A DNA stretch of 64,000 bases from Lysobacter sp. Root76. GTDB taxonomy: Bacteria; Pseudomonadota; Gammaproteobacteria; Xanthomonadales; Xanthomonadaceae. The DNA is taken from NCBI RefSeq assembly GCF_001428685.1, contig NZ_LMIK01000005.1:852505-916504 (forward strand), given 5' to 3'. Under the pieces are notes generated by a model. It saw nothing but the letters and a program-made list of their open reading frames with translations, did not search any database and had not been told where the DNA came from. How positions within the stretch are numbered: position 1 is the first letter of the stretch; each line of letters begins with the position of its first letter. Positions 8,193 to 26,117 of this stretch are shown here, in pieces. Made by a program: the position numbers and the translations under genes.

Positions 8193-8195
8193 GCG

Positions 8196-8221: not shown

Positions 8222-8228
8222 GAAGCCG

Positions 8229-8348
8229 TTAGAGTGTCGGCCATGAAAGCCTGGGCGAACCCGCATTCCTTTTGCGCCGACGTGGGTTGGCGATGGTGGC
8301 CGTCGGCCATCGTCGCTCCTGCCCACTCGCCCATGAAGGAACCGCCGC
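8229..8348 (+). promoter_or_regulatory. trpE leader/regulatory region with hairpin over tandem Trp codons
   Basis: A -10-like 'tagagt' lies 7 nt before the leader ATG (8243), so the transcript may start at or next to that ATG. Downstream, 'gatggtggcc' (8292-8301) can pair with 'ggccatcgtc' (8305-8314) across a 3-nt loop; the left arm contains the Trp codons at 8294-8299. A ribosome waiting at those codons would disrupt this stem. The trpE ribosome-binding site 'aagga' (8336-8340) follows. No U tract follows the stem, so I infer translational coupling or stalling control rather than classic transcription termination. Confidence 0.5.
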
Positions 8349-8386
8349 GTGATTTCGCCCGAACTCTTCCAGCAACAGGCCGCTAA
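8243..8386 (+). CDS. Trp-rich leader peptide upstream of trpE (trpL-like)
   Basis: A 47-codon frame beginning '[10 protein letters not shown]' and containing 'GWRWW' at residues 15-19; four Trp in the first 19 residues. It runs out of frame into trpE and ends at 8386, 38 bases past the trpE GTG start. Known Trp leader peptides (E. coli, rhizobia) contain adjacent Trp codons read by stalling ribosomes. A second frame sharing the ANP and GWRWW blocks stands before trpG (13715-13876), the main reason to believe both are translated. Expression is not shown by sequence alone. Confidence 0.65.
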
Positions 8387-9839: not shown

Positions 9840-9885
9840 TCGCGTCGCTCCGGCGCCGCCGTGCCGCGGCGCCGGCTGTTCGCCG

Positions 9886-10125: not shown

Positions 10126-10261
10126 CCAAAGCGGCTTGCGCCTGCCTCGGGCGATGTTCGATAACCCCATGCCGCCGCCACGCCCGTTGCGATGAGTAGG
10201 CGCGGCCCGCGACGGGCCCGCGAACTCGCATCGACACGACGATCGTCATCAAGGAGGCGAC

Positions 10262-11044: not shown

Positions 11045-11219
11045 CGCCGGCGCGGCTCCGAACCCTGCATGCGCGGGCCGCGACGGCCCGCGCCGAACAT
11101 TACGGATAGTTCATGTGCCGGAAAGCTCGCCGCCAGCCCGCGGCGCGCAATCTGTACCTGCGATGGGGCCCGACCCCACCGGCAATGAACCCATCCATAC
11201 AGTGTCCAGGAGCCCCATC

Positions 11220-11402
11220 ATGAACGTCCGCAATGCCCTGTTCGCGCTCGCCCTGACCGCCGTCGCCGGTTCGGCTTTCGCCGCCGCCCCGGCCCCCGCC
11301 CCGGGCGCCGCCGCCCCGGCCAAGACCGCCACGGTCAAGCACAAGGTCCACAAGGCCAAGGCCGACACCAAGGCCGGCGCGCCGGAAGCCAAGAAGAGCT
11401 GA
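11220..11402 (+). CDS. small exported Ala/Pro/Lys-rich protein
   Basis: 60 residues: a signal peptide 'MNVRNALFALALTAVAGSAF' cleaved near AAA, then a short Ala-Pro segment and a Lys-rich tail ('KHKVHKAKADTKAGAPEAKK') with no Trp or Cys. Composition resembles small periplasmic acid-shock-type proteins, but I do not assign function. A ribosome-binding 'aggagcc' precedes the ATG, and a strong terminator follows at 11493-11527, both supporting a real gene. It is immediately upstream of a two-component system. Confidence 0.65.
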   Translation: MNVRNALFALALTAVAGSAFAAAPAPAPGAAAPAKTATVKHKVHKAKADTKAGAPEAKKS

Positions 11403-11492
11403 TCCACCGCGTAAGCCTGCGTCTGCGGTTCCCTCCTACGTTCCACCGTTCTCCATTACGTCCCCGAAGCCCACCTCGACCCCAGGTGGCTG

Positions 11493-11527
11493 CCCCGCCG
11501 GCTTCCTCCCGGCGGGGTATTCTTTTT
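11493..11527 (+). terminator. intrinsic terminator after the small exported protein
   Basis: Perfect 9-bp stem 'ccccgccgg'/'ccggcgggg' with a 7-nt loop, followed by 'tattcttttt'. It separates the 60-residue gene from the response regulator. Confidence 0.85.
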
Positions 11528-11545
11528 GCGAGACCGGGAGTCGGC

Positions 11546-12220
11546 ATGCGCGTCCTGTTGATCGAAGACGATCCCCACACAGCGGGTTTCATCGCCAAGG
11601 GCCTGCGCGAGGACGGGCACGCCGTCGATCATGCCGACAACGGCAAGGACGGCCTGTTCCTGGCCACCACCGAGAGCTACGACGCGATCGTGCTCGACCG
11701 CATGCTGCCCGCACTGGACGGCCTGATCCTGCTGCAGACCCTGCGCGGCGCCGGCAATCGCACGCCGGTGCTGCTGCTGACCGCGCTGGGCGAGGTCGAT
11801 CACCGGGTCGAAGGCCTGCGTGCCGGCGCCGACGATTATCTGGTCAAGCCCTTCGCCTACGCCGAACTCAGCGCGCGCCTGGACAGCATCCTGCGCCGCG
11901 GCAGCGCCGGCGGCAGCGAGCCGACCCGGCTGCGCGTGGCCGATCTCGAACTCGACCTGCTCAGCCGCGAGGCGCACCGCGGCGGCAAGCGCATCGAACT
12001 GCAGCCGCGCGAGTTCCGCCTGCTCGAATACCTGATGCGCCAGGCCGAACGCGTGGTCACCCGGACCATGCTGCTGGAGGCGGTCTGGGACTATCACTTC
12101 GATCCGCAGACCAACGTCATCGACGTCCACATCAGCCGCCTGCGGCAGAAGATCGACCTGGGCCATCCGAAGCCGCTGTTGCACACGGTGCGCGGCGCGG
12201 GCTACCGGTTAGGCGGATGA
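11546..12220 (+). CDS. OmpR/PhoB-family response regulator
   Basis: 224 residues. Receiver domain (1-115) with acidic pocket 'LIEDD', phospho-acceptor Asp51 in 'DAIVLDRMLP', conserved Thr in 'LLLTALGE' and Lys in 'LVKPFAYAEL'. Winged-helix DNA-binding domain (about 130-224) ending 'VIDVHISRLRQKID' and 'HTVRGAGYRL', as in QseB/CopR-type regulators. Stop and histidine-kinase start overlap (ATGA), so it pairs with the downstream kinase. Signal and targets unknown. Confidence 0.93.
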   Translation: MRVLLIEDDPHTAGFIAKGLREDGHAVDHADNGKDGLFLATTESYDAIVLDRMLPALDGLILLQTLRGAGNRTPVLLLTALGEVDHRVEGLRAGADDYLVKPFAYAELSARLDSILRRGSAGGSEPTRLRVADLELDLLSREAHRGGKRIELQPREFRLLEYLMRQAERVVTRTMLLEAVWDYHFDPQTNVIDVHISRLRQKIDLGHPKPLLHTVRGAGYRLGG

Positions 12221-13596
12221 GCCCGACCCTGCGCTCGACCAGCGCGCGCCTGGCGCTGGCCGTCACGGCCTCGTTCCTGCTCGCGTTCGTGCTGCTCGGC
12301 GCGGGCGTGCATTACGCGGTATCGGCGCTGCTGGTCGAGGACGCGCGCGAGGTCGTGCGCGCCGACGCCGCCGGCCTGGTCGAGCTGTACCGCGAAGGCG
12401 GCCGCGACGCGCTGCAGTCCGAACTGCGCGAGCGCATCGCCGCGCAGGACGACGCCGACGCGGTCTATGCCCTGATGACGGCCGATGGGCGCGTACTTGC
12501 CGGCCGCTACGGCGGGCGTCCGCTCGCGCACGCGAGCAAGCTGCGCTGGACCGAATTCGTCGAGCGCGACGGCGACGAACGCCTGCGCGTGGTCGCGCAG
12601 TTGCAGCGCCTGTCCGGCGGCGACACTTTGCTGACCGGCGTGCGCCTGCGCTCGCAGGGTCGCTTTCTGGCACTGATGCTGCGCACCGCCCTGGCGGCGC
12701 TGCTGGTCGCGACGACCCTGGGCGCGCTGGTCGGCTGGTTGACCTCGCGCTGGGTGTCGCGGCGCCTGCGCAACCTGGACGACACCGCCGAACGGGTCGG
12801 CGCCGGCGAGCTGGCCTTGCGCGTGGCCCTGGACGGCAGCGACGACGCCTTCGACCGGCTCGCGCGGCGCTTCAACGGCATGCTCGACCGCATCGGCGAA
12901 CTGCTGGGCGGCGTGCGCCACGCCACCGATCACATCGCCCACGACCTGCGTACGCCGTTGACCCGCCTGCGCAACCGTCTCGAAGAACTGCGCGATCGCC
13001 CGGACGATGCCGGTCGCGACGCCGAACTGGACGCGGCGATCGCCGAAACCGACCAGCTGCTGCATTCCTTCGGCGCCTTGCTGCGGCTGGCGCGGATCGA
13101 GGCGCAGCCGCCGGTGCACGACGAGCCGGTGCTGGACCTGGCCGAACTCGCGCGCGACGCGGTCGAGCTGTACACGCCGAGCGCGGCCGAGCGCGGCATC
13201 GTCCTGCGCACCGAACTGCCGCGCGCCGACGAAGCGCCGGCGACGGTGCGCGGCGACGCCGACCAGTTGTTCCAGATGCTGGTCAACCTGCTCGACAACG
13301 CGGTCAAGTACGCGCCGGCCGGCACCGAGGTCGGCGTGGGCCTGCGCCGCGAGCGCGGCGCGGTGGTGCTGCGCATCGGCGATCGCGGCCCGGGCATCCC
13401 GGTCGCCGACCGCGAGCGGGTGTTCGACCGTTTCCAGCGCCTGGAGGCGCACCGCGGCTCGCCCGGCACCGGTTTGGGCATGAGCCTGGTGCGCGCGATC
13501 GCGCACCGCCACGGCGGCCACGTCAGCCTGGGCGACAACGCGCCCGGGCTGGAGGTGCGGATCGCACTGACGCCGGCCGAACCCGGCCCGGCCTGA
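12217..13596 (+). CDS. sensor histidine kinase
   Basis: 459 residues: transmembrane helix near residues 13-35, periplasmic sensor about 36-150, second helix about 150-178, HAMP linker, phospho-acceptor His242 in 'DHIAHDLRTPLTRLRN', then a HATPase domain with N box 'NLLDNAVKYAP', G1 'GDRGPGIP' and G2 'GTGLGMSLVRAI'. It should phosphorylate the response regulator whose stop it overlaps. The sensor domain shows no motif naming a ligand. Confidence 0.93.
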   Translation: MSPTLRSTSARLALAVTASFLLAFVLLGAGVHYAVSALLVEDAREVVRADAAGLVELYREGGRDALQSELRERIAAQDDADAVYALMTADGRVLAGRYGGRPLAHASKLRWTEFVERDGDERLRVVAQLQRLSGGDTLLTGVRLRSQGRFLALMLRTALAALLVATTLGALVGWLTSRWVSRRLRNLDDTAERVGAGELALRVALDGSDDAFDRLARRFNGMLDRIGELLGGVRHATDHIAHDLRTPLTRLRNRLEELRDRPDDAGRDAELDAAIAETDQLLHSFGALLRLARIEAQPPVHDEPVLDLAELARDAVELYTPSAAERGIVLRTELPRADEAPATVRGDADQLFQMLVNLLDNAVKYAPAGTEVGVGLRRERGAVVLRIGDRGPGIPVADRERVFDRFQRLEAHRGSPGTGLGMSLVRAIAHRHGGHVSLGDNAPGLEVRIALTPAEPGPA

Positions 13597-14074
13597 TCTT
13601 GCCCGGCCTGATCCGCCCTGCCTGATCCGCCCGGCCGCGCTTCGGCCTCGACGCGGCCGGCCGCGAGGGCAGGGCGCCGTCGCGTCGCGGCGGCGGAGCG
13701 GCTACAGTAGGGCCATGACCGTTCGCGCGAACCCGCAATTCCCGTCCAAGGCCGCTCCGGGCTGGCGATGGTGGCGTGCTGCCTCCGTCTGCGTTCCGCC
13801 GTCCTTCCGGGAAACCCTGCGTGATCTATCCGCCTTCGATCCAGCACCACGCCGTCCGCTGCGCAGCGACCGCTGAACGCCGCGCGCGCGTCCCCGCGCC
13901 GACCGCCGCCCCACCTCTCCGATCGTTATTTCCCGCGGACCGTCCGCGGCCGGATAATCGCGGGCCGGCGACCCCGGCCCCATGGCCGCAGGGCGCGTGC
14001 GCGCGCGACGGGTCGTGGTCCGGCACCCGCATCCGCCGTTGCCCACCCGGCCTCCCCCGAATCCGAGACGCGTC
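13597..14074 (+). promoter_or_regulatory. trpG upstream region with leader ORF and GC hairpins
   Basis: This 478-bp gap contains a -10-like 'tacagt' 6 nt before the leader ATG at 13715 (so a near-leaderless transcript is plausible), the leader ORF, and then perfect stems near 13934 ('ccgcgga'/'tccgcgg') and 13964 ('gggccgg'/'ccggccc'). A 'gataat' element between the stems could be a second -10. No U-tract terminator is visible, so any Trp response would need a mechanism other than simple intrinsic attenuation, or antitermination by Rho. Confidence 0.45.
13715..13876 (+). CDS. Trp-rich leader peptide upstream of trpG (trpL-like)
   Basis: 53 residues beginning 'MTVRANPQFPSKAAPGWRWW'; three Trp at residues 17, 19 and 20. 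The ANPxF and GWRWW blocks match the trpE leader frame at 8243, and the DNA around the ATG ('ggccatga', 'gcgcgaacccgca', 'tggcgatggtggc') is conserved, while the remainder diverges. It ends about 200 bp before trpG, unlike the trpE leader, which overlaps its gene. Translation is inferred. Confidence 0.6.
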   Translation: MTVRANPQFPSKAAPGWRWWRAASVCVPPSFRETLRDLSAFDPAPRRPLRSDR

Positions 14075-14656
14075 ATGTCCGTTCTGATGATCGACAACTA
14101 CGACAGCTTCACCTACAACCTCGTGCAGTACCTGCAGGCGTTGGGGGCGGAGGTGAAGGTGATCCGCAACGACGACCTGTCGGTGGCGCAGATCGAGGCG
14201 CTGCAGCCGGAGCGGATCGTGATCTCGCCCGGTCCGTGCACGCCCAACGAGGCAGGCGTGTCGCTGGAACTGATCCGCGAGCTCGGCGCGCGCGTGCCGA
14301 TCCTGGGCGTCTGCCTCGGCCACCAGAGCCTGGGCCAGGCCTACGGCGGCGACGTGGTGCGGGCCAAGACCATCATGCACGGCAAGACCTCGCGCATCCG
14401 CCACGAAGGGCAGGGCGTGTTCGCCGGATTGCCCGATCGCTACGAGGCCACGCGCTACCACTCGCTGGTGGTGTCGCGCGAGACGCTGCCCGAGTGCCTG
14501 GAGATCACCGCCTGGACCGAGAACGAGGACGGCAGCTTCGAGGAGATCATGGGCCTGCGCCACCGCGAGCATCCGGTCGAAGGCGTGCAGTTCCACCCCG
14601 AGTCGATCCTGACCGAGCACGGCCACGCCCTGCTCAAGAACTTCCTGGAGCGTTGA
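14075..14656 (+). CDS. trpG: anthranilate synthase component II (glutamine amidotransferase)
   Basis: 193 residues. Class I amidotransferase supplying ammonia to TrpE; such subunits in bacteria can also serve aminodeoxychorismate synthase. Motifs: '[16 protein letters not shown]', oxyanion '[12 protein letters not shown]', catalytic Cys80 in '[15 protein letters not shown]', and the His-Glu pair in '[10 protein letters not shown]'. ATG at 14075; the upstream open frame is GC-rich leader DNA. It starts the trpG-trpD-trpC run. Confidence 0.96.
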
Positions 14657-15007
14657 ATGACCCGTACCCACCGAGCCCTCGCCGCCGCCGTCCTGCTGGC
14701 CGGACTGGCTGGCCACGCGTCCGCGGCCACCAAGCCGTCCAGCCATGCCTGCGCCGCCGACGCCCTGATCCAGGCCCAGAAGCTGCTGGCCTTCCACACC
14801 GACGACGACGAGCGCGCCCGGGTGTCCGGGCCGGCCAAGCCGTTGCCGTCCATCGTCAATCCGGCCAACGCCAAGCAGCGCTTCGACGTGCTCGAAGTCT
14901 GGGGCTACGTCTACAAGGGCCAGTACCGGATGCGCCTGGAGTACTACCGCCTCGGCAACGACTGCGTCCTGATGGGCCAGGAAATCCTCGAGCACGCCTC
15001 GCTCTGA
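14657..15007 (+). CDS. small exported protein of unknown function in the trp operon
   Basis: 116 residues with a signal peptide ('[18 protein letters not shown]') and a mature part holding two Cys ('SHACAADAL', 'GNDCVLMG') that could form a disulfide. The sequence '[19 protein letters not shown]' suggests a small beta structure. The start codon directly follows the trpG stop and trpD begins 13 bp after it, so it is co-transcribed. No family is recognised and nothing in it points to Trp metabolism. Confidence 0.75.
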
Positions 15008-15020
15008 CCCGGACCGCATC

Positions 15021-16052
15021 ATGCCCCTGACTCCGCAAGAAGCCCTGCAGCGCACGATCGAGCACCGCGAGATCTTCCACGACGAGATGGTCGATCTGAT
15101 GCGCATGATCATGCGCGGGGAAGTCTCGCCGACCATGACCGCGGCCATTCTTACCGGCCTGCGGGTGAAGAAGGAAACCATCGGCGAGATCGCCGGCGCG
15201 GCCACGGTGCTGCGCGAATTCGCGCGCCCGGTCGAGGTCGCCAACCGCAGCGGCCTGGTCGACATCGTCGGTACCGGCGGCGACGGCGCCCATACGTTCA
15301 ACATTTCCACCGCCAGCATGTTCGTGGTGGCCGCGGCGGGTGCCAAGGTCGCCAAGCACGGCAACCGCAGCGTGTCCTCGAAGTCGGGCAGCGCCGACGT
15401 GCTGGAAGCGCTGGGCGCGGCGATCGAGCTGCAGCCCGAGCAGGTCGCGCAATGCATCGACGACACCGGCATCGGCTTCATGTTCGCGCCGGTGCACCAC
15501 CCGGCGATGAAGGTGGTCGCGCCGGTGCGCCGCGAGATGGGCGTGCGCACCTTGTTCAACATCCTCGGGCCGCTGACCAATCCGGCCGGCGCGCCCAGCA
15601 TCCTGATGGGCGTGTTCCACCCCGACCTGGTCGGCATCCAGGTGCGCGTGCTGCAGGAACTCGGCGCGCAGCGCGCGCTGGTGGTCTGGGGCCGCGACGG
15701 CATGGACGAGTTGTCGCTGGGCGCCGGTTCGCTGGTCGGCGAGCTGCGCGACGGCGTGGTGCGCGAGTACGAAGTGCACCCGGAGGATTTCGGCATCGCC
15801 ATGGCCGCCAGCCGCAATCTGCGCGTGGCCGATGCGGGCGAGTCCAAGGCGATGGTGCTGCAGGCGCTGGAGAACCGCGACGGCCTGCCGCGCGAGATCG
15901 TCGCGCTCAACGCCGGCGCCGCGCTGTACGTGGCCAACGCCGCCGAGAGCATCGCCGACGGCATCGTCCGCGCCCGCGCCGCGCTCGCTTCGGGCGCCGC
16001 GCGGGCCAAGCTGGACGAGTTCGTCGCCGCGACCCGTCGGCTCGCGTCCTGA
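15021..16052 (+). CDS. trpD: anthranilate phosphoribosyltransferase
   Basis: 343 residues. Transfers phosphoribosyl from PRPP to anthranilate. Motifs: '[18 protein letters not shown]' (PRPP loop GTGGDG), '[21 protein letters not shown]', '[30 protein letters not shown]' in pieces, and 'GRDGMDELS'. Full length. Followed after 34 bp by the monooxygenase-like gene rather than trpC, the usual neighbour. Confidence 0.97.
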
Positions 16053-16086
16053 TTCCTTTCGCCAGCCTTAGCCAGCGAGTCCGTCC

Positions 16087-16437
16087 ATGAGCGATCCTTT
16101 CGCCAAATTGCCCGCGCCGCCGTACTACGCGGTGATCTTCAGCTCGCAACGCAGCGACCAGGACGATGCCGGCTACGGCGAGGCCGCCGACCGCATGGTC
16201 GAACTGGCCGCGCAGCAGCCCGGCTACCTCGGGGTCGAGTCCACGCGCGGCGCCGACGGCTTCGGCATCACCGTCAGTTACTGGACGGACGAGGCCTCGA
16301 TCGTGGCCTGGAAACGCAATCTCGAACACGCCGCGACCCGCGAGCGCGGCCGCAAACACTGGTATGGTCGCTACGAATTGCGCGTGGCCAAGGTCGAGCG
16401 CGCTTACGGCTGGACCAAGGGGCCACAGGATGAATGA
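16087..16437 (+). CDS. antibiotic biosynthesis monooxygenase (ABM)-domain protein
   Basis: 116 residues, one ABM-like ferredoxin fold: 'YYAVIFSSQRSDQDDAGYGEAADRMVELAAQQPGYLGVES' (in parts) and 'ISYWTDEASIVAWKRNLEH' fit the dimeric alpha-beta barrel pattern 'GYLG.....W.s.e....W'. Such proteins include heme-degrading enzymes, quinol monooxygenases and proteins of unknown role, so substrate is open. Its 3' end overlaps the isoaspartyl dipeptidase start by 8 bp. Confidence 0.8.
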   Translation: MSDPFAKLPAPPYYAVIFSSQRSDQDDAGYGEAADRMVELAAQQPGYLGVESTRGADGFGITVSYWTDEASIVAWKRNLEHAATRERGRKHWYGRYELRVAKVERAYGWTKGPQDE

Positions 16438-17635
16438 CGCCGCGCCGCAGGCCGGATTGCGCTTGCTGCGCAACGCCGAAGTCTATGCGCCGCAACCGCT
16501 GGGCCGGCAGCATCTGCTGCTGGGCGGCGGCAAGATCCTGTGGATGGGCGCCGATGCGCCGTCCCTGCCGGCCGAACTGTCGGTCGAGAGCATCGACCTG
16601 GAAGGCCGGCGCCTGATCCCGGGCCTGATCGACGGCCACGTCCACGTCACCGGCGGCGGCGGCGAAGCCGGCTTCCGCACCCGCGTGCCGGCGCCGATGC
16701 TGTCGCGCTACACCCGCGCCGGCGTGACCAGCGTGGTCGGGCTGCTCGGCACCGACGACCTCGCGCGCAGCACGCGCGAGCTGGTCGCGGCGATTTACGC
16801 CTTGCGCGAAGAAGGCCTGAACGCCTGGGGCTATTGCGGCGGCTACCACCTGCCGCCGACCACGCTGACCGGCAGCGTGCGCGGCGACGTGGTTTTCGTC
16901 GAACCGCTGATCGGCGTGGGCGAGGTCGCGATCAGCGACCACCGTTCCAGCCAGCCGACCCTGGACGAATTGCTGCGGTTGGCCTCGGATGCGCACGTCG
17001 CCGGGCTGATGACCGGCAAGGCCGGCATCGTCCATCTGCATCTGGGCGACGGTCCGCGCGGGCTGGAGTTCGTGCGTCAGGCGCTGGAGCGCAGCGAACT
17101 GCCGGCGCGCGTGTTCAACCCGACCCACGTCAATCGGCGCAAGGCCTTGTTCGAGGAAGCGCTGGAGCTGGCGCGGCGCGGTTGCTGGATCGACCTGACC
17201 GCGTTTCCGGTCGAGGACGGCGAGGACGCCTGGAGCGCCGACGAGGCCCTGATCCGCTATCTCGACAGCGGCGCGCCGCCGGAGCGGGTGACGGTCAGTT
17301 CCGACGCGGGCGGCTGTCTGCCCTGTTTCGACGCCCATGGCCGCGTCTGCGGCATGGACGTGGGCGAGTCGGGCGCGCTGCTGCAGTGCCTGAACGCGGT
17401 ACTGGCGCGCGGCGTCGCCCTGGAGCGCGCGCTGCCGGCCTTCACCCGCAACCCCGCGCAGTTGCTGCGCCTGGACGGCAAGGGCCGGATCGAGGTCGGC
17501 TGCGATGCCGATCTGGTGTCCCTGGACGGCCGCGGCGCGGCGCATGATGTCTTCATCGGCGGACGGCCGCACCTGCGCGATGGCGCGGTGCTGCGCCATG
17601 GTCAGTTCGAAACCCCGTCGCAGCATTCCGAATAG
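16430..17635 (+). CDS. iadA: isoaspartyl dipeptidase (beta-aspartyl dipeptidase)
   Basis: 401 residues, amidohydrolase family. Cleaves beta-Asp-Xaa dipeptides, including beta-Asp-Arg released from cyanophycin. Metal ligands: His70-Val-His72 in 'DGHVHVTGGGGE', histidines in 'KAGIVHLHLGDG' and 'FNPTHVNR', and Asp292 in 'VSSDAGGCLP'; the family-typical 'GVGEVAISDHRSSQPT' is present. ATG at 16430 overlaps the preceding gene. Directly before cyanophycinase (22 bp), it completes depolymerisation to Asp and Arg. All key residues appear intact. Confidence 0.93.
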   Translation: MNDAAPQAGLRLLRNAEVYAPQPLGRQHLLLGGGKILWMGADAPSLPAELSVESIDLEGRRLIPGLIDGHVHVTGGGGEAGFRTRVPAPMLSRYTRAGVTSVVGLLGTDDLARSTRELVAAIYALREEGLNAWGYCGGYHLPPTTLTGSVRGDVVFVEPLIGVGEVAISDHRSSQPTLDELLRLASDAHVAGLMTGKAGIVHLHLGDGPRGLEFVRQALERSELPARVFNPTHVNRRKALFEEALELARRGCWIDLTAFPVEDGEDAWSADEALIRYLDSGAPPERVTVSSDAGGCLPCFDAHGRVCGMDVGESGALLQCLNAVLARGVALERALPAFTRNPAQLLRLDGKGRIEVGCDADLVSLDGRGAAHDVFIGGRPHLRDGAVLRHGQFETPSQHSE

Positions 17636-17657
17636 TTAGTAGAAGCGAGTACGTAGG

Positions 17658-18500
17658 ATGGCACCCAGCAAAATCCCCGATGGCGAACAGCGGGGTTGGA
17701 TCGTTCCGATCGGCGGAGCGGAAGACAAGGAGAACGACACCGCCATCCTGCGGCGTTTTCTCAAGGTCAGCGGCGGCAGCGCCGCCGACATCGTGGTGAT
17801 CCCGACCGCCAGCCGTCTGGCCGACACCGGCGATCGCTACGAGAAGCTGTTCACCGAGCTCGGCGCGGCGCAAGTCGAGGTGATGGACTTCGACACGCGC
17901 CGCGACTGCCACGAACCGGGCCGGGTGCGGCGGATCGAGCGCGCCAGCGGCATTTTCTTTACCGGCGGCAATCAGATCCGGATTTCGACCATGCTGGGCG
18001 GCACGCCGGTTGCGCAAGCGATCCGTGCGCGCAATGCTCAGGGCGTGACCGTCGGCGGGACCAGCGCCGGCGCCAGTATTCTCAGCGAGCACATGATCGC
18101 TTACGGTGTCGAAGGGGCGTCGCCGCGCGCCAACAGCGTCCGGCTCGCGCCGGGCCTGGGTCTGACCAACCGCGTGGTGATCGACCAGCACTTCCGCCAG
18201 CGCGACCGTCTCGGCCGTCTGGTGGCGTCGCTGGCCTACAACCCGTTCGCGGTCGGCATCGGTCTGGACGAGGACACGGCGGCGTTCATCGGTCCCGACA
18301 ATACGATCGAGGTCGAGGGCAGCGGTTCGGTCACCGTGGTCGACGCCGACGGTCTGCAGTTCTCGTCCATGCACCTGGTCGGCGAGAACGAGCCGGTGTG
18401 CCTGCTCGGCCTGGGCGTGCACATACTCACCAAGGGCGCCACGTTCAATCTCAACACCCGCAAAGCATCCGCCGGTTCGCTGGCGCCACCCAAGACATGA
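17658..18500 (+). CDS. cphB: cyanophycinase
   Basis: 280 residues, peptidase family S51. Hydrolyses cyanophycin to beta-Asp-Arg dipeptides. The nucleophile is Ser136 in 'TVGGTSAGASILSEHM'; 'WIVPIGGAEDKEND', 'FTGGNQIRISTML', and 'VVIDQHFRQRDRLGRL' (catalytic His region) are family landmarks. The length matches well-studied cyanophycinases (~270). No signal peptide, so it works in the cytoplasm. It lies 12 bp before cphA, in the same direction. Confidence 0.95.
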   Translation: MAPSKIPDGEQRGWIVPIGGAEDKENDTAILRRFLKVSGGSAADIVVIPTASRLADTGDRYEKLFTELGAAQVEVMDFDTRRDCHEPGRVRRIERASGIFFTGGNQIRISTMLGGTPVAQAIRARNAQGVTVGGTSAGASILSEHMIAYGVEGASPRANSVRLAPGLGLTNRVVIDQHFRQRDRLGRLVASLAYNPFAVGIGLDEDTAAFIGPDNTIEVEGSGSVTVVDADGLQFSSMHLVGENEPVCLLGLGVHILTKGATFNLNTRKASAGSLAPPKT

Positions 18501-18512
18501 AGTGAGGTTCAC

Positions 18513-21302
18513 ATGCGCATACTCGAACGCACCGTCTACGTCGGCCCTTCGCTGTATGCGCATTTTCCGGTCATACGGCTGGAGCTGGACCTGCAGGCGC
18601 TGGAAGCCTGGCCGACCGCGCGCCTGGGGCCGGCCTTCGTCGACGGTCTGCTCGCCGCGCTGCCCGGGCTGGGCGAACACGGCTGTTCCTATCGCGAGGC
18701 CGGCGGCTTCGTGCGGCGCCTGCGCGAGGACGAGGGCACCTGGCTGGGCCACGTGCTCGAACACGTCGCGATCGAGCTGCAGAACGTCGCCGGCGAGAAC
18801 GTCACCTTCGGCAAGACCCGCAGCGTCGGCGACGAGCGTCCCGGCGTGTACTCGGTGGTCTACGAGTACGCGCAGCGCGAGGAGGGCATCGCCGCCGGCG
18901 AACTCGGCCTGAAGCTGCTGTGCTCGCTGCTGCCGGCCGAACTGCGTCCGGCCGGCAGCGTGCCCGAGGATTGGGATTGGGAATCGGCGCGCGACGACTT
19001 CATCCGCTACGCCCAGCGCCGCGCGCTGGGCCCGTCGACCGCCTCGCTGGTGCGGGCGGCCGAGGAGCGCGGGATTCCGTGGCTGCGCCTGAACACCCAG
19101 TCGCTGATCCAGTTCGGCCACGGCAAGTACCAGCAGCGCATCCAGGCCACGATCACCGGCCGCACCCCGCATATCGCGGTCGAACTGGCCAGCGACAAGG
19201 AAGAAACCAACAAGATCCTGGCCTCGCTGGGCCTGCCGGTGCCGCGCCAGGAACTGGTCACCGACGCCAGCGGCGCGGTGCGCGCGGCGCGCAAGCTCGG
19301 CGGCGCGGTGGTGACCAAGCCCTACAACGGCAACCACGGCCGCGGCATCACCATCAACATTTCCGCCGAGGACGAGATCCGCGCCGGCTTCGAAGCCGCG
19401 CGCGAGCATTCGCGCTCGGTGATCGTCGAGACCTACGTCGGCGGCGACGACCATCGCCTGCTGGTGGTCAACGGCGAACTCATCGCCGCGACCCGGCGTA
19501 CTCCCGGCCATGTGGTCGGCGACGGCAAGCGCACGATCGCCGAACTGGTCGAAGCGGTGAACCAGGACCCGCGCCGCGGCGTCGGCCACGAGAAAGTGCT
19601 GACCCGGCTGGAGCTCGACGCCCAGGCCGCGCTGATGATGGAGCGCGTGGGCTACACCGCCGAATCGGTGCCGGCCGACGACGAGGTCGTCTACCTGCGC
19701 TCCACCGCCAACCTGTCCACCGGCGGCACCGCCACCGACGTCACCGACATCATCCATCCCGACAACCGCGACATGGCGGTGCGCGCGGTGCGCGCGATCG
19801 GCCTGGACGTGGGCGGCGTCGACTTCATCTCGCCCAATATCGCCGAGAGCTACAAGAACGCCGGCGGCGGCATCTGCGAGATCAACGCCGCCCCCGGCTT
19901 CCGCATGCACGTCGCGCCCAGCGAAGGCACGCCGCGCGATGCGGCCGGTCCGGTGATCGACATGCTGTTCCCGCCCGGCGCGCCGTCGCGGGTGCCGATC
20001 GCCGCGGTCACCGGCACCAACGGCAAGACCACCACCGCGCGCATGCTCGCCCACATCGCCAAGATGGGCGGCTACACCCCCGGCCTGACCACCACCGACG
20101 GCGTCTACATCGACGGCCAGCGCACGGTCGAAGGCGACATGACCGGGCCGGTGTCGGCGCGCATGGTGCTGTCGGATCCGCAGATCGACTTGGCGGTGCT
20201 CGAAACCGCCCGCGGCGGCCTGCTGCGCGCCGGCATGGGCGTGTCCGAGGTCAACGTCGGCGCGGTCATCAACATCCAGTCCGACCATCTCGGCCTGAAG
20301 GGCATCGACACCCTGGAGCAGCTGGCCGAGGTCAAGCGCGTGGTGGTCGAGGTCGCCAAGGACTGCGCGGTGCTCAACGCCGACGACCCCAACGTGCTGA
20401 AGATGTCGGCCTACACCGACGCCAAGGTGATCTGTTACGTCACCATGAACCCGGCCCACGCGCTGGTGCGCGAGCACATACGCGCCGGCGGCCGCGCCTG
20501 CGCGCTCGAGGCCGGCGTCAACGGCCACATGATCACCCTGTACGACAAGGGCAGCCATATTCCGCTGCTGTGGACCCACCTGATCCCGGCGACGATGGAA
20601 GGCCGCGCCCTGCACAACGTGCAGAACGCGATGGTCGCCGCGGCCATGGCGTTCTCGATGGGGATCAAGCTCGATGCGATCCGCCACGGCCTGCGCACCT
20701 TCGACACCACGTTCTTCCAGGCGCCGGGGCGCATGAACGTCTACAACGAGCATCCATTCAAGGTGCTCATGGACTACGGCCACAACGCGCACGCGGTCGG
20801 GGTCATGGCCGACCTGGCCCAGCGCCTGGACGTGGCCGGGCGCCGCCTGGTCGTGGTCGCCGGTCCCGGCGACCGTCGCGACGAAGACCTGCACGCGATC
20901 GCCGAGGCCGTGGCCGGCAAGTTCGACCACTACGTCTGCCGCCGCGACGACGGCCTGCGCGGGCGCGACGGCGACGAGGTGCCGCGCATCATCGCCAAGG
21001 CCCTGCAGGCGCGTGGCGTGAGCGCCGAAGCGATCACGATCATCCCCGACGAACAAGCCGCGATCGACGGCGCCCTGCGCATGGCCCAATTCGGCGATCT
21101 GCTGCTGGTGTTCGCCGATGCCCTGGCGCGGTCGTGGAAGCAGATCATCCACTTCCAGCCCGAGGGCGCGGTGGCCGCGGCGACGGCACGGATCGAATTG
21201 CCGCCGCTGGAACAGACCCTGGACGAGGCCGTGGTCGCGGCCATGGAAGGCGTGGTCCGCGACGAGCGCGGGCTGCGTTTCGAACGCGAAGAGAGCGATT
21301 GA
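18513..21302 (+). CDS. cphA: cyanophycin synthetase
   Basis: 929 residues, the standard size (~870-930). Polymerises Asp with Arg side-chains into the multi-L-arginyl-poly-L-aspartate storage polymer. N-terminal domain about 1-160; ATP-grasp domain about 170-480 with Lys269 in 'VTKPYNGNHGRGITINI'; Mur-ligase-like domain from about 490 with P-loop 'GTNGKTTT' at 501-508, 'NIQSDHLGLKGI' and 'MDYGHNAHAVGVM' near 750. In known enzymes the ATP-grasp half extends the Asp backbone and the Mur-like half adds Arg. Stop is immediately followed by the GTG of the next gene. Confidence 0.97.
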   Translation: MRILERTVYVGPSLYAHFPVIRLELDLQALEAWPTARLGPAFVDGLLAALPGLGEHGCSYREAGGFVRRLREDEGTWLGHVLEHVAIELQNVAGENVTFGKTRSVGDERPGVYSVVYEYAQREEGIAAGELGLKLLCSLLPAELRPAGSVPEDWDWESARDDFIRYAQRRALGPSTASLVRAAEERGIPWLRLNTQSLIQFGHGKYQQRIQATITGRTPHIAVELASDKEETNKILASLGLPVPRQELVTDASGAVRAARKLGGAVVTKPYNGNHGRGITINISAEDEIRAGFEAAREHSRSVIVETYVGGDDHRLLVVNGELIAATRRTPGHVVGDGKRTIAELVEAVNQDPRRGVGHEKVLTRLELDAQAALMMERVGYTAESVPADDEVVYLRSTANLSTGGTATDVTDIIHPDNRDMAVRAVRAIGLDVGGVDFISPNIAESYKNAGGGICEINAAPGFRMHVAPSEGTPRDAAGPVIDMLFPPGAPSRVPIAAVTGTNGKTTTARMLAHIAKMGGYTPGLTTTDGVYIDGQRTVEGDMTGPVSARMVLSDPQIDLAVLETARGGLLRAGMGVSEVNVGAVINIQSDHLGLKGIDTLEQLAEVKRVVVEVAKDCAVLNADDPNVLKMSAYTDAKVICYVTMNPAHALVREHIRAGGRACALEAGVNGHMITLYDKGSHIPLLWTHLIPATMEGRALHNVQNAMVAAAMAFSMGIKLDAIRHGLRTFDTTFFQAPGRMNVYNEHPFKVLMDYGHNAHAVGVMADLAQRLDVAGRRLVVVAGPGDRRDEDLHAIAEAVAGKFDHYVCRRDDGLRGRDGDEVPRIIAKALQARGVSAEAITIIPDEQAAIDGALRMAQFGDLLLVFADALARSWKQIIHFQPEGAVAAATARIELPPLEQTLDEAVVAAMEGVVRDERGLRFEREESD

Positions 21303-23117
21303 GTGACGGCGGATTCCCAAGGCGACGTCGCGGCACCGGAGTTCGAGTTTCCGTTCGAGGATTCGCGCCGGCTGACCGGTGCGAATCTGTATTTCGACCG
21401 GCCTGGCGTCGTGCTGGAAACACGCGGCGCGCGGCCGCCGGCGCAGGCGCTCGCGCGTTGGCGGACCAACATCGCCGGCGCGCGCGAGCTGCTGCAGTGG
21501 TCGCAGCAGGACGATATCGTCGTGCGTGAGCACGCCAGCGGCGCTTCCTTGGCCTTCGTCGCACCGCTCGACCGCCTGTACGCCGCCACCGAAATCAACG
21601 AATGGGCCTGGGCCGAAGTCGTCGGGCTGGTTCCGCAGGACGCGTTGCCGCCGCATGCGCCCGGGCATGCCGCGTACTGGGATCGCGACGACGCCTTGCG
21701 CACGCTGCATGCGCTGGCGCGTGCCGAAGCGCGTTCCGATTTGCTCGTCTTGATCGAGCAGGCGCGGGCGCAGGGCGTGCTCGCCTACAGCGACGACGAG
21801 GCGCTGTCCCTGGGCGAGGGCGCGACCAGTCGGACCTGGAGCCTCGACGATCTTCCGTCGGGCGACGAAGTGCCCTGGCAGGACCTGCGCACGATCCCCA
21901 AGGCTGTCGTTACCGGCTCCAACGGCAAGACCACCAGCGTGCGCCTGCTCGCGGCGATGGCGCGCGCGCAGGGTTGGAACACCGCGCACAGCAGTACCGA
22001 TGGCCTCTACGTCGGCGGCGAATGCATCGACGGCGGCGACTATTCCGGCCCGGTCGGCGCGCGCACCCTGCTGCGCCGGACCGATGTCGAAGCGGCGATC
22101 CTGGAAACCGCGCGCGGCGGCCTGCTGCGCCGTGGCCTCACCCCGCAGGGCGCGCGCGTGGCCCTGGTCACCAATATCAGCCCCGATCATTTCGGCGAGT
22201 ACGGCATCCACAACCTCGACGACCTGGCGCAAGTGAAGCTCACCGTCGCGCGCAGCCTGGCCGAGGACGGCCTGCTGGTGCTCAACGCCGACGACGAGCT
22301 GCTGGTCCGGCACAGCGCGGCGTTGCCGCAGCGGATCGGCTGGTTCGCGCTCGACGAATCGCATCCGCGCCTGCGTGCGCACCGGGAGCAGGGCGGCGCG
22401 ACTTGCGGCGTGCGCGACGGCCGGCTGCGCCTGCATTACGACGGCCGCGATCACGACCTGGGCGAAGTCGCCGCGATGCCGCTGACCCTCGGCGGCCGCG
22501 TCGCCTACAACCTCGCCAACCTGGCCGGCGCGGCGCTGGCCGCGGCCGCGCTGGGCGTCGCACCGGAGCGCATCGCCCAGGTGCTGGCGCGTTTCGGCGC
22601 CGCACCCGGCGACAACCCCGGGCGCCTGCAGCGCTGGTCCTACGGCGACAGCGAGGTCTACCTGGACTACGCCCACAACCCCGACGGCCTGGGCAAGCTG
22701 CTCGAAGTCGCGGCCCGGCCCGGGCACCGGCTCGGCCTGCTGCTGGGGCAGGCCGGCAACCGCGAGGACCGCGACATCCGCGAACTCGCCGCGGTCGCGG
22801 CGGGTTTCCGCCCCGATCGGGTCGTGCTCAAGGACATGGAAGGCTACCTGCGCGGCCGCGCCGAGGGCGAAGTCGCGGGGATCCTGCGCGACGAACTGCT
22901 GCGCCACGGCCTGCCCGAGGACGCGCTGGAGGTGTGCCTGCAGGAGGTCGAGGCCGCCACGCGGCTGCTTCGCTGGGCCGGGCCGGGCGACGTGCTGGTG
23001 CTGCCGATCCACAACAGCCAGGCCCGCGAGGCGGTCGTCGTCTTGCTCGATCGGCTGCAACTGGGACAATGGCGCCCCGGCCGGCCCCTGACGGGCGAAG
23101 TGGAGATGATGGAATGA
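21303..23117 (+). CDS. second cyanophycin-synthetase-like protein, Mur-ligase domain only (CphA'-like)
   Basis: 604 residues. Residues about 195-604 match the Mur-ligase half of cyanophycin synthetase: P-loop 'GSNGKTTS' at 205-212, '[12 protein letters not shown]', '[11 protein letters not shown]', '[12 protein letters not shown]' and '[10 protein letters not shown]' near 455, all intact. The first ~195 residues show no ATP-grasp signature, so it cannot do both cyanophycin reactions. The GTG start abuts the cphA stop and the end overlaps trpC by 4 bp. A cphA' paralogue next to cphA is known in some betaproteobacteria; whether it is the same protein type cannot be settled here. Confidence 0.85.
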
Positions 23118-23905
23118 CCGATGTCCTGCGCACGATCCTGGCCCGCAAGGCCGAGGAGATCGAACAGCGCAGCCGGGTGCGCTCGCTGGACGACCTGCGC
23201 GTGCGCGCGGCGCAGCAGGCGCCCACGCGCGGCTTCGTCGACGCGATCAAGCGCAAGCACGCCGCCGGCGAGGCCGCGGTGATCGCCGAGGTCAAGAAGG
23301 CCAGTCCGTCCAAGGGCCTGATCCGCGCCGATTTTCAGCCCGCGCAGATCGCGCGCAGCTACGAGGCCGGCGGCGCGGCCTGCCTGTCGGTGCTGACCGA
23401 CGTCGATTTCTTCCAGGGCAGCAACCTGTACCTGGGCGAGGCGCGCGCGGCCTGCTCGCTGCCGGTGCTGCGCAAGGACTTCACCATCGACCCCTACCAG
23501 GTCTATGAGGCCCGGGTGATCGGCGCCGACGCGATCCTGCTGATCGTGGCCGCGCTCGAGGACGGGCCGATGATCGAGATGGCCGGGCTGGCGATGGAGC
23601 TGGGCATGGACGTGCTGGTCGAGGTCCACGACATCGACGAGCTCGAGCGCGCGCTGCAGACCGATTGCGAGCTGATCGGCGTCAACAACCGCAACCTGCG
23701 CACCTTCGAGGTCTCGCTGGACACCAGCATCGCCCTGCGCGACGCCGTGCCGCGCGACCGCACCCTGGTCACCGAGAGCGGCATCGCCACCGGCGCCGAC
23801 GTGGCCAAGATGCGCGCGGCCGGCATCGAGACCTTCCTGATCGGCGAAAGCTTCATGCGCGAACGCGACCCGGGCGCGGCCCTGCAGCGGCTGTTCGCGG
23901 CATGA
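23114..23905 (+). CDS. trpC: indole-3-glycerol phosphate synthase
   Basis: 263 residues, TIM barrel that closes the indole ring in Trp synthesis. Motifs: '[19 protein letters not shown]' (catalytic Lys), '[15 protein letters not shown]', '[28 protein letters not shown]' (second catalytic Lys) and '[13 protein letters not shown]'. The ATG overlaps the CphA'-like stop (ATGA), so its translation is coupled to the cyanophycin genes instead of trpD. Confidence 0.97.
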
Positions 23906-24642
23906 GCGCGGAGGGGCGCTTCCCGCCCGCGCGCGAGGACGCGCCGCTGGTGGTGTTCGACTTCGACCACACCCTCTACGACGGCGATTCCGGCAGTCAC
24001 CTGTTCGCCTGGCTGATCCGGCGCTCATGGTGGCGGCAGCTGCTGGCGCTGCTGATCGCGCCGGTGTTCGGGCCGATGATCGCGTTCCTGCCGACCCGGC
24101 GGGTCGGTATTTCCGGATTCGTCTGGGTCGGTTCGGTCGGCATGGGCGGACGCCGCGAGTTCGACGCCGCCATCGACCGCTACGTCGCCGCGCACACCGA
24201 CGAGATCCGGCGCCGGCTGCTGCCGGTGGCGCTGGACGTGCTGCATCACCACCGCGAGCGCGGCGACCGGGTGGTGATCGCCACCGGCGCGCCGCCGGAG
24301 CTGGCGCGCGCGATCCTGGCCTTCGTCGCCCACGAGGACGTGCCGGTGGTCGGCACCCTGGTCGGTCCGCGCCTGGGCGCGGTCGGCGCGCTGCGCCACT
24401 GCCACTCCGAAATGAAGATGACCATGCTGCGCGAGGCGGGCTATACCGCGCCGGTCGAGGTCGCCTATTCCGACAGCAGCGCCGACCTGCCGCTGCTCAA
24501 GGCCGCGCGCCGGCCGGTCGTGGTCAACCCGAAACCGCGCCGGATCGAGATGTTCCGGCAGGTGCTGCCCCCGGGCACGCCGATCCTCAATTGGGGTTGC
24601 CCCGGGCGCGGCGGCGACGCGGTGGCCTCGGCGGCGGGCTAG
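23902..24642 (+). CDS. HAD-IB family phosphatase
   Basis: 246 residues. Nucleophile motif '[14 protein letters not shown]' (DxDxT), motif II '[10 protein letters not shown]', and motif III/IV '[14 protein letters not shown]', as in SerB-like HAD-IB enzymes and 'PAP/CicA'-type phosphatases. Substrate is unknown. Start overlaps the trpC stop (ATGA), making it the last gene of the trp-cyanophycin run; repeats follow. Confidence 0.88.
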
Positions 24643-24650
24643 GGATCGGA

Positions 24651-24860
24651 ATTGGGATTGGGATTGGGATTGGGCCTGCGTCGGCTTGCGGGGTGTCGCG
24701 ATCGCGGCTTACGCCGCTCCCACAGAAGGCAAGTACGACCCGCTGTGGGAGCGGCGTAAGCCGCGATTCGCGTGAATTCGCGCGCCGGCGCAGTGCCGAA
24801 GAAGGCTGCGGCGCTCGCCGCACTCACCATCGCTCTGGGGTAGGAGCGGCGTAAGCCGCG
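24651..24860. repeat. hexamer tandem repeat and three REP-like palindromes
   Basis: After the HAD gene come four copies of 'attggg' (24651-24674), then 'cgcggcttacgccgctccca' near 24710, its inverse 'tgggagcggcgtaagccgcg' near 24745, and another copy 'taggagcggcgtaagccgcg' near 24840. These belong to the same family as 9886-10125. Nothing coding is supported in the 311-bp gap. Confidence 0.8.
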
Positions 24861-24953
24861 ACCACGCACCCCCAAGGCCCGCAGTCCTTCCGGCGCAGCC
24901 GTTCATTCCCCATCGGATAGCAGCATTCCGCCGTCGGCGGAACACTCAGGCCC

Positions 24954-25415
24954 TCAGTCGCCCAGCGCCTTAACAAACCGCAGCGAACCATCGCTGTAGC
25001 CGCAATCGCGGTAGAACGCATGCGCCTCGCTGCGGCGCAGGTTGCTGGTGACCTCGATCCGCGACACGCCGGTGCGGCGCGAAATCAGCTCGACCTCGCG
25101 CAGCAGGCGCCGGCCGATGCCCTGGCGCTGGCAGGTCGGCGATACCACCAGCGCGGTGATCCGCGCCAATTCGTTGCCGTGGACGACCGAATAGAGGGTG
25201 TAGAGCGAGACCAGGCCGCAGGCTTCGCCGTCGATCTCGGCCAGCAGCAGGTGCTGGCGCGGATCGTGACGGACCACCGCGATGCGTTCGGCGGCCTCGT
25301 CGCGGTTGCAGGGATAGCCGAGGTCGCCGAGCAGGCGGGCGACATCGTGGGCATCGCCCAATTCCGCCGGACGCACCCGGGGTGCGGTCTCGGCGGAGGT
25401 GGCGGCGCGGCCCAT
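24954..25415 (-). CDS. GNAT family N-acetyltransferase
   Basis: 153 residues with the acetyl-CoA loop 'ALVVSPTCQRQGIGRRLL' (Q/RxxGxG/A) and the C-terminal 'EAHAFYRDCGYSDGS' pattern. A GNAT gene directly downstream of clp is familiar from Xanthomonas; here the gap from the clp stop is about 10 bp, so co-transcription is likely. Substrate unknown. Confidence 0.9.
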   Translation of the reverse strand: MGRAATSAETAPRVRPAELGDAHDVARLLGDLGYPCNRDEAAERIAVVRHDPRQHLLLAEIDGEACGLVSLYTLYSVVHGNELARITALVVSPTCQRQGIGRRLLREVELISRRTGVSRIEVTSNLRRSEAHAFYRDCGYSDGSLRFVKALGD

Positions 25416-25425
25416 CGTCGGCGGC

Positions 25426-26117
25426 TCAGCGCGTCCCGTACAGGACGACGGTCTTGCCGCGGGCGTGGAGCTTGTTGTCGGCCTGCAGCTTCTTGAGCAC
25501 GCGGCCGGCCATTTCGCGCGAGCAGCCGACCAGGCGCGACAGCTCCTGGCGCGACACCCGCAACTGGGTGCCCTGCGGGTGGCTCATGGCCTCGGGGGTT
25601 CCTTGGCCAGGTCGTGCAGGGCGCGCACGATGCGGTCGGTGACGTCGAGGAAGGCCAGACGGCCGGCCTTGCGGCTGGTATCGAGCAGGCGCCGCGAAAT
25701 CTGCGCGCCGATCGCGTACAGCAGCTTGGGCGCGTCCAGCGACAGCCGGGTCAGCAGCAGGTCGTAGAGGCGCTCGTGGCCGATCTCGGCGAGCTCGCAG
25801 GTGCTGCGCGTGCGCAGGATCACCTCGCGATGGTCGCTTTCGATGAACAGGCCGAGCTCGCCGACGAATTCGCCGGGGCCGAAGTAGCCGAGCACCAGTT
25901 CGCGGCCGTCTTCTTCCTCGGTGATGATGCTCACCGAGCCGGAAACGACGTAGTACAGGGTGCTGGCGGGGTCCCCCGGGCGGAACACGTCGGTCCGCGA
26001 CGGATAGCGTCGGCGGTGGCAGTGCGCCAGGAAGCGTTCGATCGTTGCGCCGTCGGGCAGCAACGGGCTATTGGTTCGACGCAGGGCAGTCAAGGGGGCT
26101 ACCGGGTTGGCTGACAT
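25426..26117 (-). pseudogene. clp: Clp (Crp-like global regulator), split by a 1-base frameshift
   Basis: The ATG at 26117 starts 177 residues of the cyclic-nucleotide-binding-type sensor and dimer helix ('IERFLAHCHRRRYPSRTDVF', 'LVLGYFGPGEFVGELGLF', 'FLDVTDRIVRALHDLAKEP'), then a TGA at 25584-25586. The DNA-binding domain continues in another frame from 25587 to 25426 ('LRVSRQELSRLVGCSREMAG', 'HARGKTVVLYGTR'). The break is at a C5 tract; one extra C would restore a 230-residue protein, the length of Xanthomonas Clp. The N-terminal stop overlaps an ATG (ATGA) opening the second piece. Sequencing error, phase variation or a true mutation are all possible. Confidence 0.85.

What the first reader, a model, noticed from the sequence alone, without database searches (positions are those of the whole stretch)
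14075..24642. Cyanophycin synthesis and degradation genes embedded between trpD and trpC
Seen: trpG, exported protein, trpD, ABM protein, iadA, cphB, cphA, CphA'-like, trpC and a HAD phosphatase all run in one direction with overlaps or gaps of 34 bp or less. Family knowledge: iadA and cphB together break cyanophycin to Asp and Arg; cphA makes it. Inference: a polymer storing nitrogen is transcriptionally tied to Trp synthesis, and trpC translation is coupled to the second cph gene. I know of no described link between the two. A Trp-sensing leader stands in front, so the storage genes would inherit Trp control.
Basis: partly seen in the sequence, partly recalled or inferred. Interest (0 to 1): 0.8.

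Follow-up and report, generated by a model that had tools for sequence, protein, structure and literature searches.

The report
Nitrogen-storage genes inside tryptophan operon
In this soil bacterium and several related genera, the genes that make and break the nitrogen-storage polymer cyanophycin sit inside a tryptophan-making operon; this is real and old, but the storage genes probably keep their own promoter, so it may be the last tryptophan gene that depends on them rather than the other way round.

Summary
Confirmed: trpG, a small exported protein, trpD, an ABM protein, iadA, cphB, cphA, a second CphA-like gene, trpC and a HAD gene run in one direction with gaps of 34 bp or less and three overlaps. 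Relatives explain it: the common family order is trpD-(abm)-trpC, and a ready-made cph operon sits directly before trpC in 17 of 80 other loci (Lysobacter, Thermomonas, Solilutibacter, Luteimonas). The linked blocks share one cph clade that also holds some unlinked copies, so insertion was old and followed by moves. The Trp leader is real: a GWRWW leader peptide with a -10-like box precedes trpE in much of the family, and Lysobacter has a second copy before trpG. That the storage genes simply inherit Trp control is doubtful: an extended -10-like element lies within 200 nt before the first or second cph gene in 18 of 18 linked loci, and none within 130 nt of trpC (0 of 18). My reading: one unit with two inputs, in which trpC (one copy found) is fed by read-through from the cph block. 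The motif was counted after it was noticed, and no transcript data exist. No paper found in my searches links the two pathways.

The parts
8230..8386 (+). trpE leader: -10-like TAGAGT (8230-8235), leader ORF from ATG 8243 with GWRWW, ending 35 nt inside trpE
   Evidence: read; conserved geometry in relatives; hairpin over the Trp codons, z -2.98
13703..13876 (+). second Trp leader, before trpG: -10-like TACAGT (13703-13708), leader ORF ATG 13715 to stop 13876 with GWRWW
   Evidence: counterparts in L031-L034
13821..14087 (+). possible relic of a duplicated trpE start (GTG 13821), open frame running 12 nt past the first base of trpG
   Evidence: alignment A1, ORF list; inference
14075..14656 (+). 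trpG
   Evidence: PF00117, TIGR00566
14657..15007 (+). small protein, exported by the look of its N-terminus; no family
   Evidence: among the 17 linked loci seen in L031 and L032 only
15021..16052 (+). trpD
   Evidence: TIGR01245
16087..16437 (+). ABM-domain protein, an old neighbour of trpC (present in 36 of 53 cph-less trpC loci)
   Evidence: PF03992
16360..16368 (+). extended -10-like element TGGTATGGT inside abm, 70 nt before iadA; the only TG-N-TA-NNN-T on the + strand of 13501-24700
   Evidence: candidate only
16430..17635 (+). iadA, isoaspartyl dipeptidase
   Evidence: TIGR01975 above cut-off
17658..18500 (+). cphB, cyanophycinase (GTSAGAS in the translation)
   Evidence: TIGR02069, PF03575
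18513..21302 (+). cphA, full-length cyanophycin synthetase
   Evidence: TIGR02068; phmmer to 7lgm over residues 1-904
21303..23117 (+). cphA'-like: CphA relative without a recognisable ATP-grasp domain
   Evidence: AlphaFold2 pLDDT 90.9 and Foldseek best hits CphA1
23114..23905 (+). trpC, the only match at E <= 1e-30 in the genome
   Evidence: NF001373
23902..24642 (+). HAD-family phosphatase
   Evidence: PF12710

Best explanation
A ready-made cyanophycin operon (iadA-cphB-cphA-cphA') was inserted long ago near the end of a Lysobacteraceae trp operon and has been kept there in Lysobacter, Thermomonas, Solilutibacter and Luteimonas. Shown by sequence: the gene order, the cph-less order in relatives, the common cph clade, the Trp leader. 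Inferred: RNA polymerase enters twice, at the Trp-leader promoter before trpG (13703) and at an extended -10 promoter just before the cph block (16360 here). The cph genes are therefore made from their own promoter plus Trp-controlled read-through, while trpC, with no promoter-like element of its own, is made only by transcription that has crossed the 6.7-kb block. The coupling would thus run from storage genes to trpC at least as much as from Trp to storage genes. The polymer chemistry is the ordinary one (family knowledge): CphA makes cyanophycin from Asp and Arg, CphB and IadA take it back; CphA' is probably an accessory Mur-ligase-type enzyme.
For: Order and gaps. 17 of 80 fetched relatives have the block directly before trpC, 16 of them with trpD seen on the other side. 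In 53 loci with trpC but no cph beside it, trpD is seen in 51 and abm in 36. CphA+CphA' trees: 18 linked rows lie in one group of 27 with 9 unlinked rows (77 rows, SH-aLRT 90, 5 changes), or of 25 with 7 unlinked (97/98, 3 changes; 41 of 77 rows, the unlinked rows L076 and L106 of that group left out). TG-N-TA-NNN-T before the first or second cph gene: 17 of 18 linked loci within 130 nt, 18 of 18 within 200; before cphA 0 of 18, cphA' 0 of 18, trpC 0 of 18 (130 nt); before trpC in cph-less loci 0 of 53; random stretches 0.85% per 130 nt. The only such element on the + strand of 13501-24700 is at 16360. In 7 other Lysobacter iadA genes, where CGT and GGT are 5.6% and 5.8% of their codons, the element is built with CGT-GGT in the ones printed. 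One trpC match in the genome. Leader.
Against: The -10-like motif is permissive, was noticed first and counted afterwards, and in Lysobacter and Thermomonas it lies in coding sequence; in Thermomonas the codons CGT and GGT are not so rare (20% and 13%); linked loci are related, so 18 of 18 is not 18 independent events. The stricter two-hexamer scan finds no promoter in 13500-25000. The trpG leader region folds no better than shuffles (z +1.34) and the leaders show no clear covariation, so how the leader acts is unknown. One strictly monophyletic set of linked blocks is rejected (AU p 0.0098), unlinked rows L076, L106 and L228 fall inside or beside the Thermomonas-type rows, and in G071 the block lies before abm, not after it, so there was more than one event. 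On the trp tree linked loci lie in separate lineages among cph-less ones (6 changes). No transcript data exist here.
Confidence: 0.6

Rival explanations
1. One reading: in the window's subclade the cph genes are transcribed only from the Trp-leader promoter before trpG and so follow Trp starvation; cyanophycin is then made when Trp shortage stalls protein synthesis and Arg and Asp pile up.
For: Trp leader with its own -10-like box stands before trpG in the window and L031-L034; abm/iadA overlap by 8 bp and all gaps are 34 bp or less; the element found before cphB in Luteimonas and Thermomonas types is missing in window, L031 and L032; two-hexamer promoter scan empty.
Against: TGGTATGGT 70 nt before iadA in this subclade (window, L006, L007, L010, L012, L031, L032; some of these may be one genome fetched twice); the cph block survives away from trp in G080; CphA' is Trp-rich; breakdown genes are in the same unit, so induction by Trp starvation would raise synthesis and breakdown together.
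Confidence: 0.25
2. Pure hitchhiking: the block landed in an operon gap by chance, is transcribed by its own promoter, and the trp setting has no regulatory meaning for either pathway.
For: The block is patchy: 10 of 20 genomes of the genus (own included) have a cyanophycinase over the cut-off, 26 of 129 family genomes (own included) have a strong CphA' match, and by comparison of coordinates only 8 of these 26 have it within 409 bp of trpC. 63 of 80 fetched loci show no trpC beside cph, 56 of them with at least 900 nt downstream. G080 keeps cph away from trp.
Against: The placement is shared by several genera, and no element of the kind counted lies before trpC in 18 of 18 linked loci, so trpC cannot be indifferent unless a promoter of another kind exists.
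Confidence: 0.15

Closest known systems
Cyanophycin gene clusters with iadA (Sharon et al. 2023, PMC10206079; abstract and passages seen)
   Same: cphA, cyanophycinase and iadA side by side; 37 of 231 genomes with all three cluster them according to that paper
   Different: Its main text has no occurrence of 'trp', Lysobacter or Xanthomon-; here the cluster is inside a trp operon
cphA-cphB of Lysobacter capsici AZ78 (PMC4742617; passages seen)
   Same: Same genus, cyanophycinase followed by cyanophycin synthetase
   Different: Described as a two-gene cluster; main text has no occurrence of 'trp'; iadA, cphA' and the trp neighbours are not in the passages seen
Neighbouring long and short cphA copies (PMC10687191; passages seen; it cites Fuser and Steinbuchel 2007, which I did not see)
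   Same: A full cphA next to a second cphA copy, the shorter one noted in Tetrasphaera
   Different: Those clusters lie with glycogen genes or insertion sequences, not trp genes
Amino-acid leader-peptide attenuators (trpL of E. coli, recalled; peTrpL, PMC7298713, search listing and start of abstract only)
   Same: Short ORF with clustered Trp codons before trp genes
   Different: No Rfam Trp_leader match, no terminator-like site on + before 23385; the leader before trpE starts 7 nt after a -10-like box and overlaps trpE by 35 nt

Membership tests
Cyanophycin metabolism cluster (cphA1 + cyanophycinase + isoaspartyl dipeptidase) | full-length CphA with ATP-grasp and Mur-ligase domains | tested here: met
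   TIGR02068 1100.8 bits against 850; PF08443, PF08245, PF02875, PF18921; 7lgm over residues 1-904
Cyanophycin metabolism cluster (cphA1 + cyanophycinase + isoaspartyl dipeptidase) | cyanophycinase, S51 family | tested here: met
   TIGR02069 264.6 against 126.6; PF03575; GTSAGAS in the translation (its role as nucleophile motif is recalled)
Cyanophycin metabolism cluster (cphA1 + cyanophycinase + isoaspartyl dipeptidase) | IadA | tested here: met
   TIGR01975 376.8 against 331.25
Cyanophycin metabolism cluster (cphA1 + cyanophycinase + isoaspartyl dipeptidase) | polymer is made in the cell | not testable with these tools
   needs granule or polymer assay
CphA1 (for the second gene, 21303-23117) | ATP-grasp domain and full family score | tested here: not met
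   320.4 bits against 850; no ATP-grasp family among its matches. Its model still finds CphA1 structures first. Filed as CphA'-like, not as CphA1
Ribosome-mediated Trp attenuator | short leader ORF with clustered Trp codons before trp genes | tested here: met
   29 of 42 trpE rows examined (three of the 42 are the window's own locus; several misses had a wrongly placed start); 5 of 5 Lysobacter trpG, window and L031-L034
Ribosome-mediated Trp attenuator | competing hairpins with a terminator or start-site mask | tested here: inconclusive
   trpE leader z -2.98, trpG leader z +1.34, no clear covariation, no + strand terminator-like site between 13500 and 23384
Ribosome-mediated Trp attenuator | match to Rfam RF00513 | tested here: not met
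One polycistronic operon | same strand, short gaps, no terminator between genes | tested here: met
   the one terminator-like site on + (23385-23402) lies inside trpC
One polycistronic operon | a transcript spans abm-iadA and cphA'-trpC | not testable with these tools
   no RNA data

The most novel reading that the evidence does not exclude
Cyanophycin genes have taken over the transcription of the only trpC: in these genera a nitrogen-storage promoter plus a Trp leader jointly set the indole-glycerol-phosphate step of Trp synthesis, so that storage state and Trp supply are tied through one mRNA, an operon fusion kept across several genera.
Probability: 0.35. Interest if true: 0.7.

Novelty: new variant of a known kind. 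Interest (0 to 1): 0.52.

Why it matters
It is a clear case of a storage-polymer operon built into an amino-acid biosynthetic operon and shared by several genera. It offers a test of how an inserted operon and its host operon share promoters, and a way to ask whether N storage in non-cyanobacteria answers to amino-acid supply. If trpC really hangs on the cph promoter, disrupting cph genes would give Trp phenotypes that have nothing to do with cyanophycin, which anyone making cph mutants in Lysobacter or Luteimonas must know.

Tried and rejected
Rejected: that the arrangement is an artefact of one assembly (17 of 80 other loci show the block directly before trpC). Rejected: a single strictly monophyletic linked set (AU p 0.0098). 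Rejected as support for Trp-starvation expression: Trp avoidance (CphA 0.745% W in 18 linked against 0.739% in 59 unlinked, p 0.36; CphA' 1.86% in 18 against 1.73% in 63, p 0.17). Led nowhere: Rfam at relaxed threshold on 8100-14200 (one sub-threshold hit); pattern TGGCGNTGGTGG in the whole genome (35 hits against 25 for the reversed control, so the pattern alone is not specific); consensus folding of leaders; strict TGNTATNTTG in the window (0 hits). The first codon test at the abm WYG site had few rows and was redone.

Limits: the 80 loci are the best 80 of 198 relatives. 7 of the 63 not-linked ones have under 900 nt downstream of cphA', so their status is less sure. The CphA+CphA' tree used 77 of 81 rows (4 lacked a long enough CphA); the careful trees used 41 of 77 (without the unlinked L076 and L106, which one search puts among the linked rows) and 37 of 77 plus L228 and L230, chosen by me. 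Adjacency was judged by eye from coordinates.
Full report
OBSERVATION. The window lies in a 4.36-Mb genome; among named loci its nearest relative here is Lysobacter sp. cf310 (trpC 98%). From 14075 to 24642 ten genes run on the + strand: trpG, a 116-aa protein that looks exported, trpD, an ABM protein, iadA, cphB, cphA, a second CphA-like gene (here cphA'), trpC and a HAD phosphatase. Gaps are 0, 13, 34, -8, 22, 12, 0, -4 and -4 bp (coordinates of these genes; junctions).

WHAT THE PARTS ARE. IadA, CphB and CphA pass NCBI's curated cut-offs; CphA aligns with the Acinetobacter baylyi enzyme 7lgm over residues 1-904. CphA' does not pass the CphA cut-off (320 against 850 bits) and has Mur-ligase domains only by Pfam. 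Its AlphaFold2 model (30 sequences, pLDDT 90.9) finds CphA1 structures first (7lgj, TM 0.74 by query length, 890 alignment columns for 604 residues). I infer a CphA without the ATP-grasp part; its own task is unknown to me.

THE ANCESTRAL OPERON. In 53 loci with trpC but no cph beside it (26 of the 30 fetched, the other 4 being linked; 27 of 27 fetched), trpD was seen within 1.5 kb in 51 and abm in 36. abm ends in a 4-bp overlap with trpC in 12 of these 36. So abm is an old member of this trp operon, and the tight join at trpC is not a special mark of cph.

THE INSERT. Of the 80 best relatives of CphA' (of 198 found), 17 have the cph block directly before trpC: Lysobacter (L031-L034), L. tolerans/Solilutibacter (L036), Thermomonas (L039, L051), Luteimonas and allies (L038, L040, L049, L052, L053, L063, L080, L090, L095) and L042; trpD is seen on the other side in 16, L042's contig being too short. 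The other 63, among them the Pseudoxanthomonas, Arenimonas, Dokdonella and Chiayiivirga loci fetched, show no trpC beside cph; 56 of the 63 have at least 900 nt downstream. In an unnamed sample of 129 family genomes, 26 have a strong CphA' match (E below 1e-140) and in 8 it lies within 409 bp of trpC (coordinates compared by eye; own genome included). So a pre-existing cph operon entered the trp operon.

HOW OFTEN. In the 77-row CphA+CphA' tree the 18 linked rows lie in a group of 27 with 9 unlinked rows (SH-aLRT 90), with 5 changes of label. In a careful tree of 41 of these rows, from which the unlinked L076 and L106 of that group were left out, 18 linked and 7 unlinked rows (6 Pseudoxanthomonas and L035) form one clade (97/98) with 3 changes; one strict clade of linked rows is rejected, p 0.0098. 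In a third tree (39 rows) unlinked L228 (G080) and L076 lie among the Thermomonas-type rows, and so does L230 (G071), where the block lies before abm rather than after it. On a TrpC+TrpD tree the linked loci lie in several lineages among cph-less ones, with 6 changes, of which supported branches force 3. One old insertion with several exits and re-entries fits, in my judgement, best; repeated transfer by recombination at the trp flanks is not excluded.

THE LEADER. Upstream of trpG is an ORF with GWRWW, with counterparts in L031-L034. Upstream of trpE the same motif occurs here and in relatives: 29 of 42 trpE rows had the Trp-codon cluster in an open frame within 300 nt (three of the 42 are the window's own locus; several of the 13 misses had a wrongly placed start). 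In 19 of the 29 the first Trp codon is 61 nt before trpE, and in 27 of 29 the leader ends 35 nt inside trpE. A TAnAnT box stands about 7 nt before the leader ATG in the 14 of 14 sequences that I aligned, with T, A, A, T invariant, so the leader mRNA probably starts at or near its own AUG (inference). The copy before trpG aligns with the trpE copy through the trpE start, so it looks like a duplication made when trpE and trpG were parted by 4.2 kb of other genes in Lysobacter (inference). The trpE leader of the window folds better than shuffles, with a hairpin over the Trp codons (z -2.98); the trpG leader region does not (z +1.34).

PROMOTERS. A permissive extended -10 pattern, TG-N-TA-NNN-T, was noticed before cphB in Luteimonas and then counted. 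It is found within 130 nt before iadA or cphB in 17 of 18 linked loci and within 200 nt in 18 of 18: before iadA at -70 in window, L031, L032; before cphB at -50 (L033), -161 (L034), -40 to -50 (4 of 4 Thermomonas type) and -39 to -101 (9 of 9 Luteimonas type). Within 130 nt it is found before cphA, cphA' and trpC in 0 of 18 each, and before trpC in 0 of 53 cph-less loci. Nine Lysobacter loci (L001-L007, L010, L012) all have it, but some may be the same genomes. Random 130-nt stretches have it at 0.85%. Among unlinked loci it is before iadA in 4 of 23, cphB in 11 of 46, cphA in 4 of 53, cphA' in 0 of 56. The pattern was chosen after seeing the data, and in Lysobacter and Thermomonas it lies in coding sequence, so it is a candidate, not a proof. 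In the other Lysobacter loci printed it is written with CGT-GGT, each about 6% of their codons there; in Thermomonas these codons are 20% and 13%. In the window subclade it depends on TAT-GGT in abm, while 39 of 45 abm genes with WY at that place use TAC. The stricter two-hexamer scan found nothing.

A NATURAL TEST. Its single trpC match and single trpD match lie in a trpE-G-D-C set that is 36-47% identical to the window's. The block can thus live without its trp hosts.

MECHANISM. I read the unit as one transcription unit with two entries: the Trp-leader promoter before trpG and a promoter just before the cph block. trpC has one match in the genome and no such promoter-like element, so it would be made only by polymerase that has crossed the block. 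Steps shown: order, conservation, leader, motif positions. Steps inferred: promoter activity, read-through, Trp response.

LITERATURE. Full-text searches for cyanophycin with trpC, with Lysobacter, with Xanthomonadaceae, with 'tryptophan biosynthesis' and operon, with anthranilate, with isoaspartyl dipeptidase and operon, and for cyanophycin synthetase with Mur ligase and CphA2 gave no paper whose listing, or passages where I looked, links the two; only open-licence PMC papers are in that library. The Lysobacter capsici AZ78 paper reports cphA-cphB without the trp setting (passages).

VERDICT.

Noticed in passing
25501-26117 (- strand): The clp (CRP-like regulator) gene next to this locus has a reading frame that is cut short in its 3' part; real change or assembly error not settled.
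   Followed up: no
9840-14075: trpE and trpG are parted by a SIMPL-domain protein, a small ORF and a response regulator/histidine kinase pair; in Luteimonas panaciterrae (L063) a similar pair stands directly before trpG.
   Followed up: partly
13703-13876 and 8230-8386: Two copies of a Trp leader (GWRWW) with a -10-like box about 7 nt before the ATG, suggesting a leaderless leader-peptide mRNA; the second copy seems to be a duplication carrying the trpE start.
   Followed up: partly
16087-16437: The ABM-domain protein is an old partner of trpC in this family (36 of 53 cph-less loci); its role in Trp synthesis is unknown.
   Followed up: partly
   Followed up: partly
L063, L070, L075, L081, L083, L089, L090, L097, L107: cphA' matches in two parts with about 500-600 bases between them near its N-terminal third, in two linked Luteimonas and seven unlinked loci; a shared insert would fit exchange between them.
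   Followed up: no
9880-10130 and 24690-24860: Seen by eye: repeated GTAGGAGCGGCGTAAGCCGCGAC-type palindromic elements in the trpE-trpG gap and after the end of the unit.
   Followed up: no
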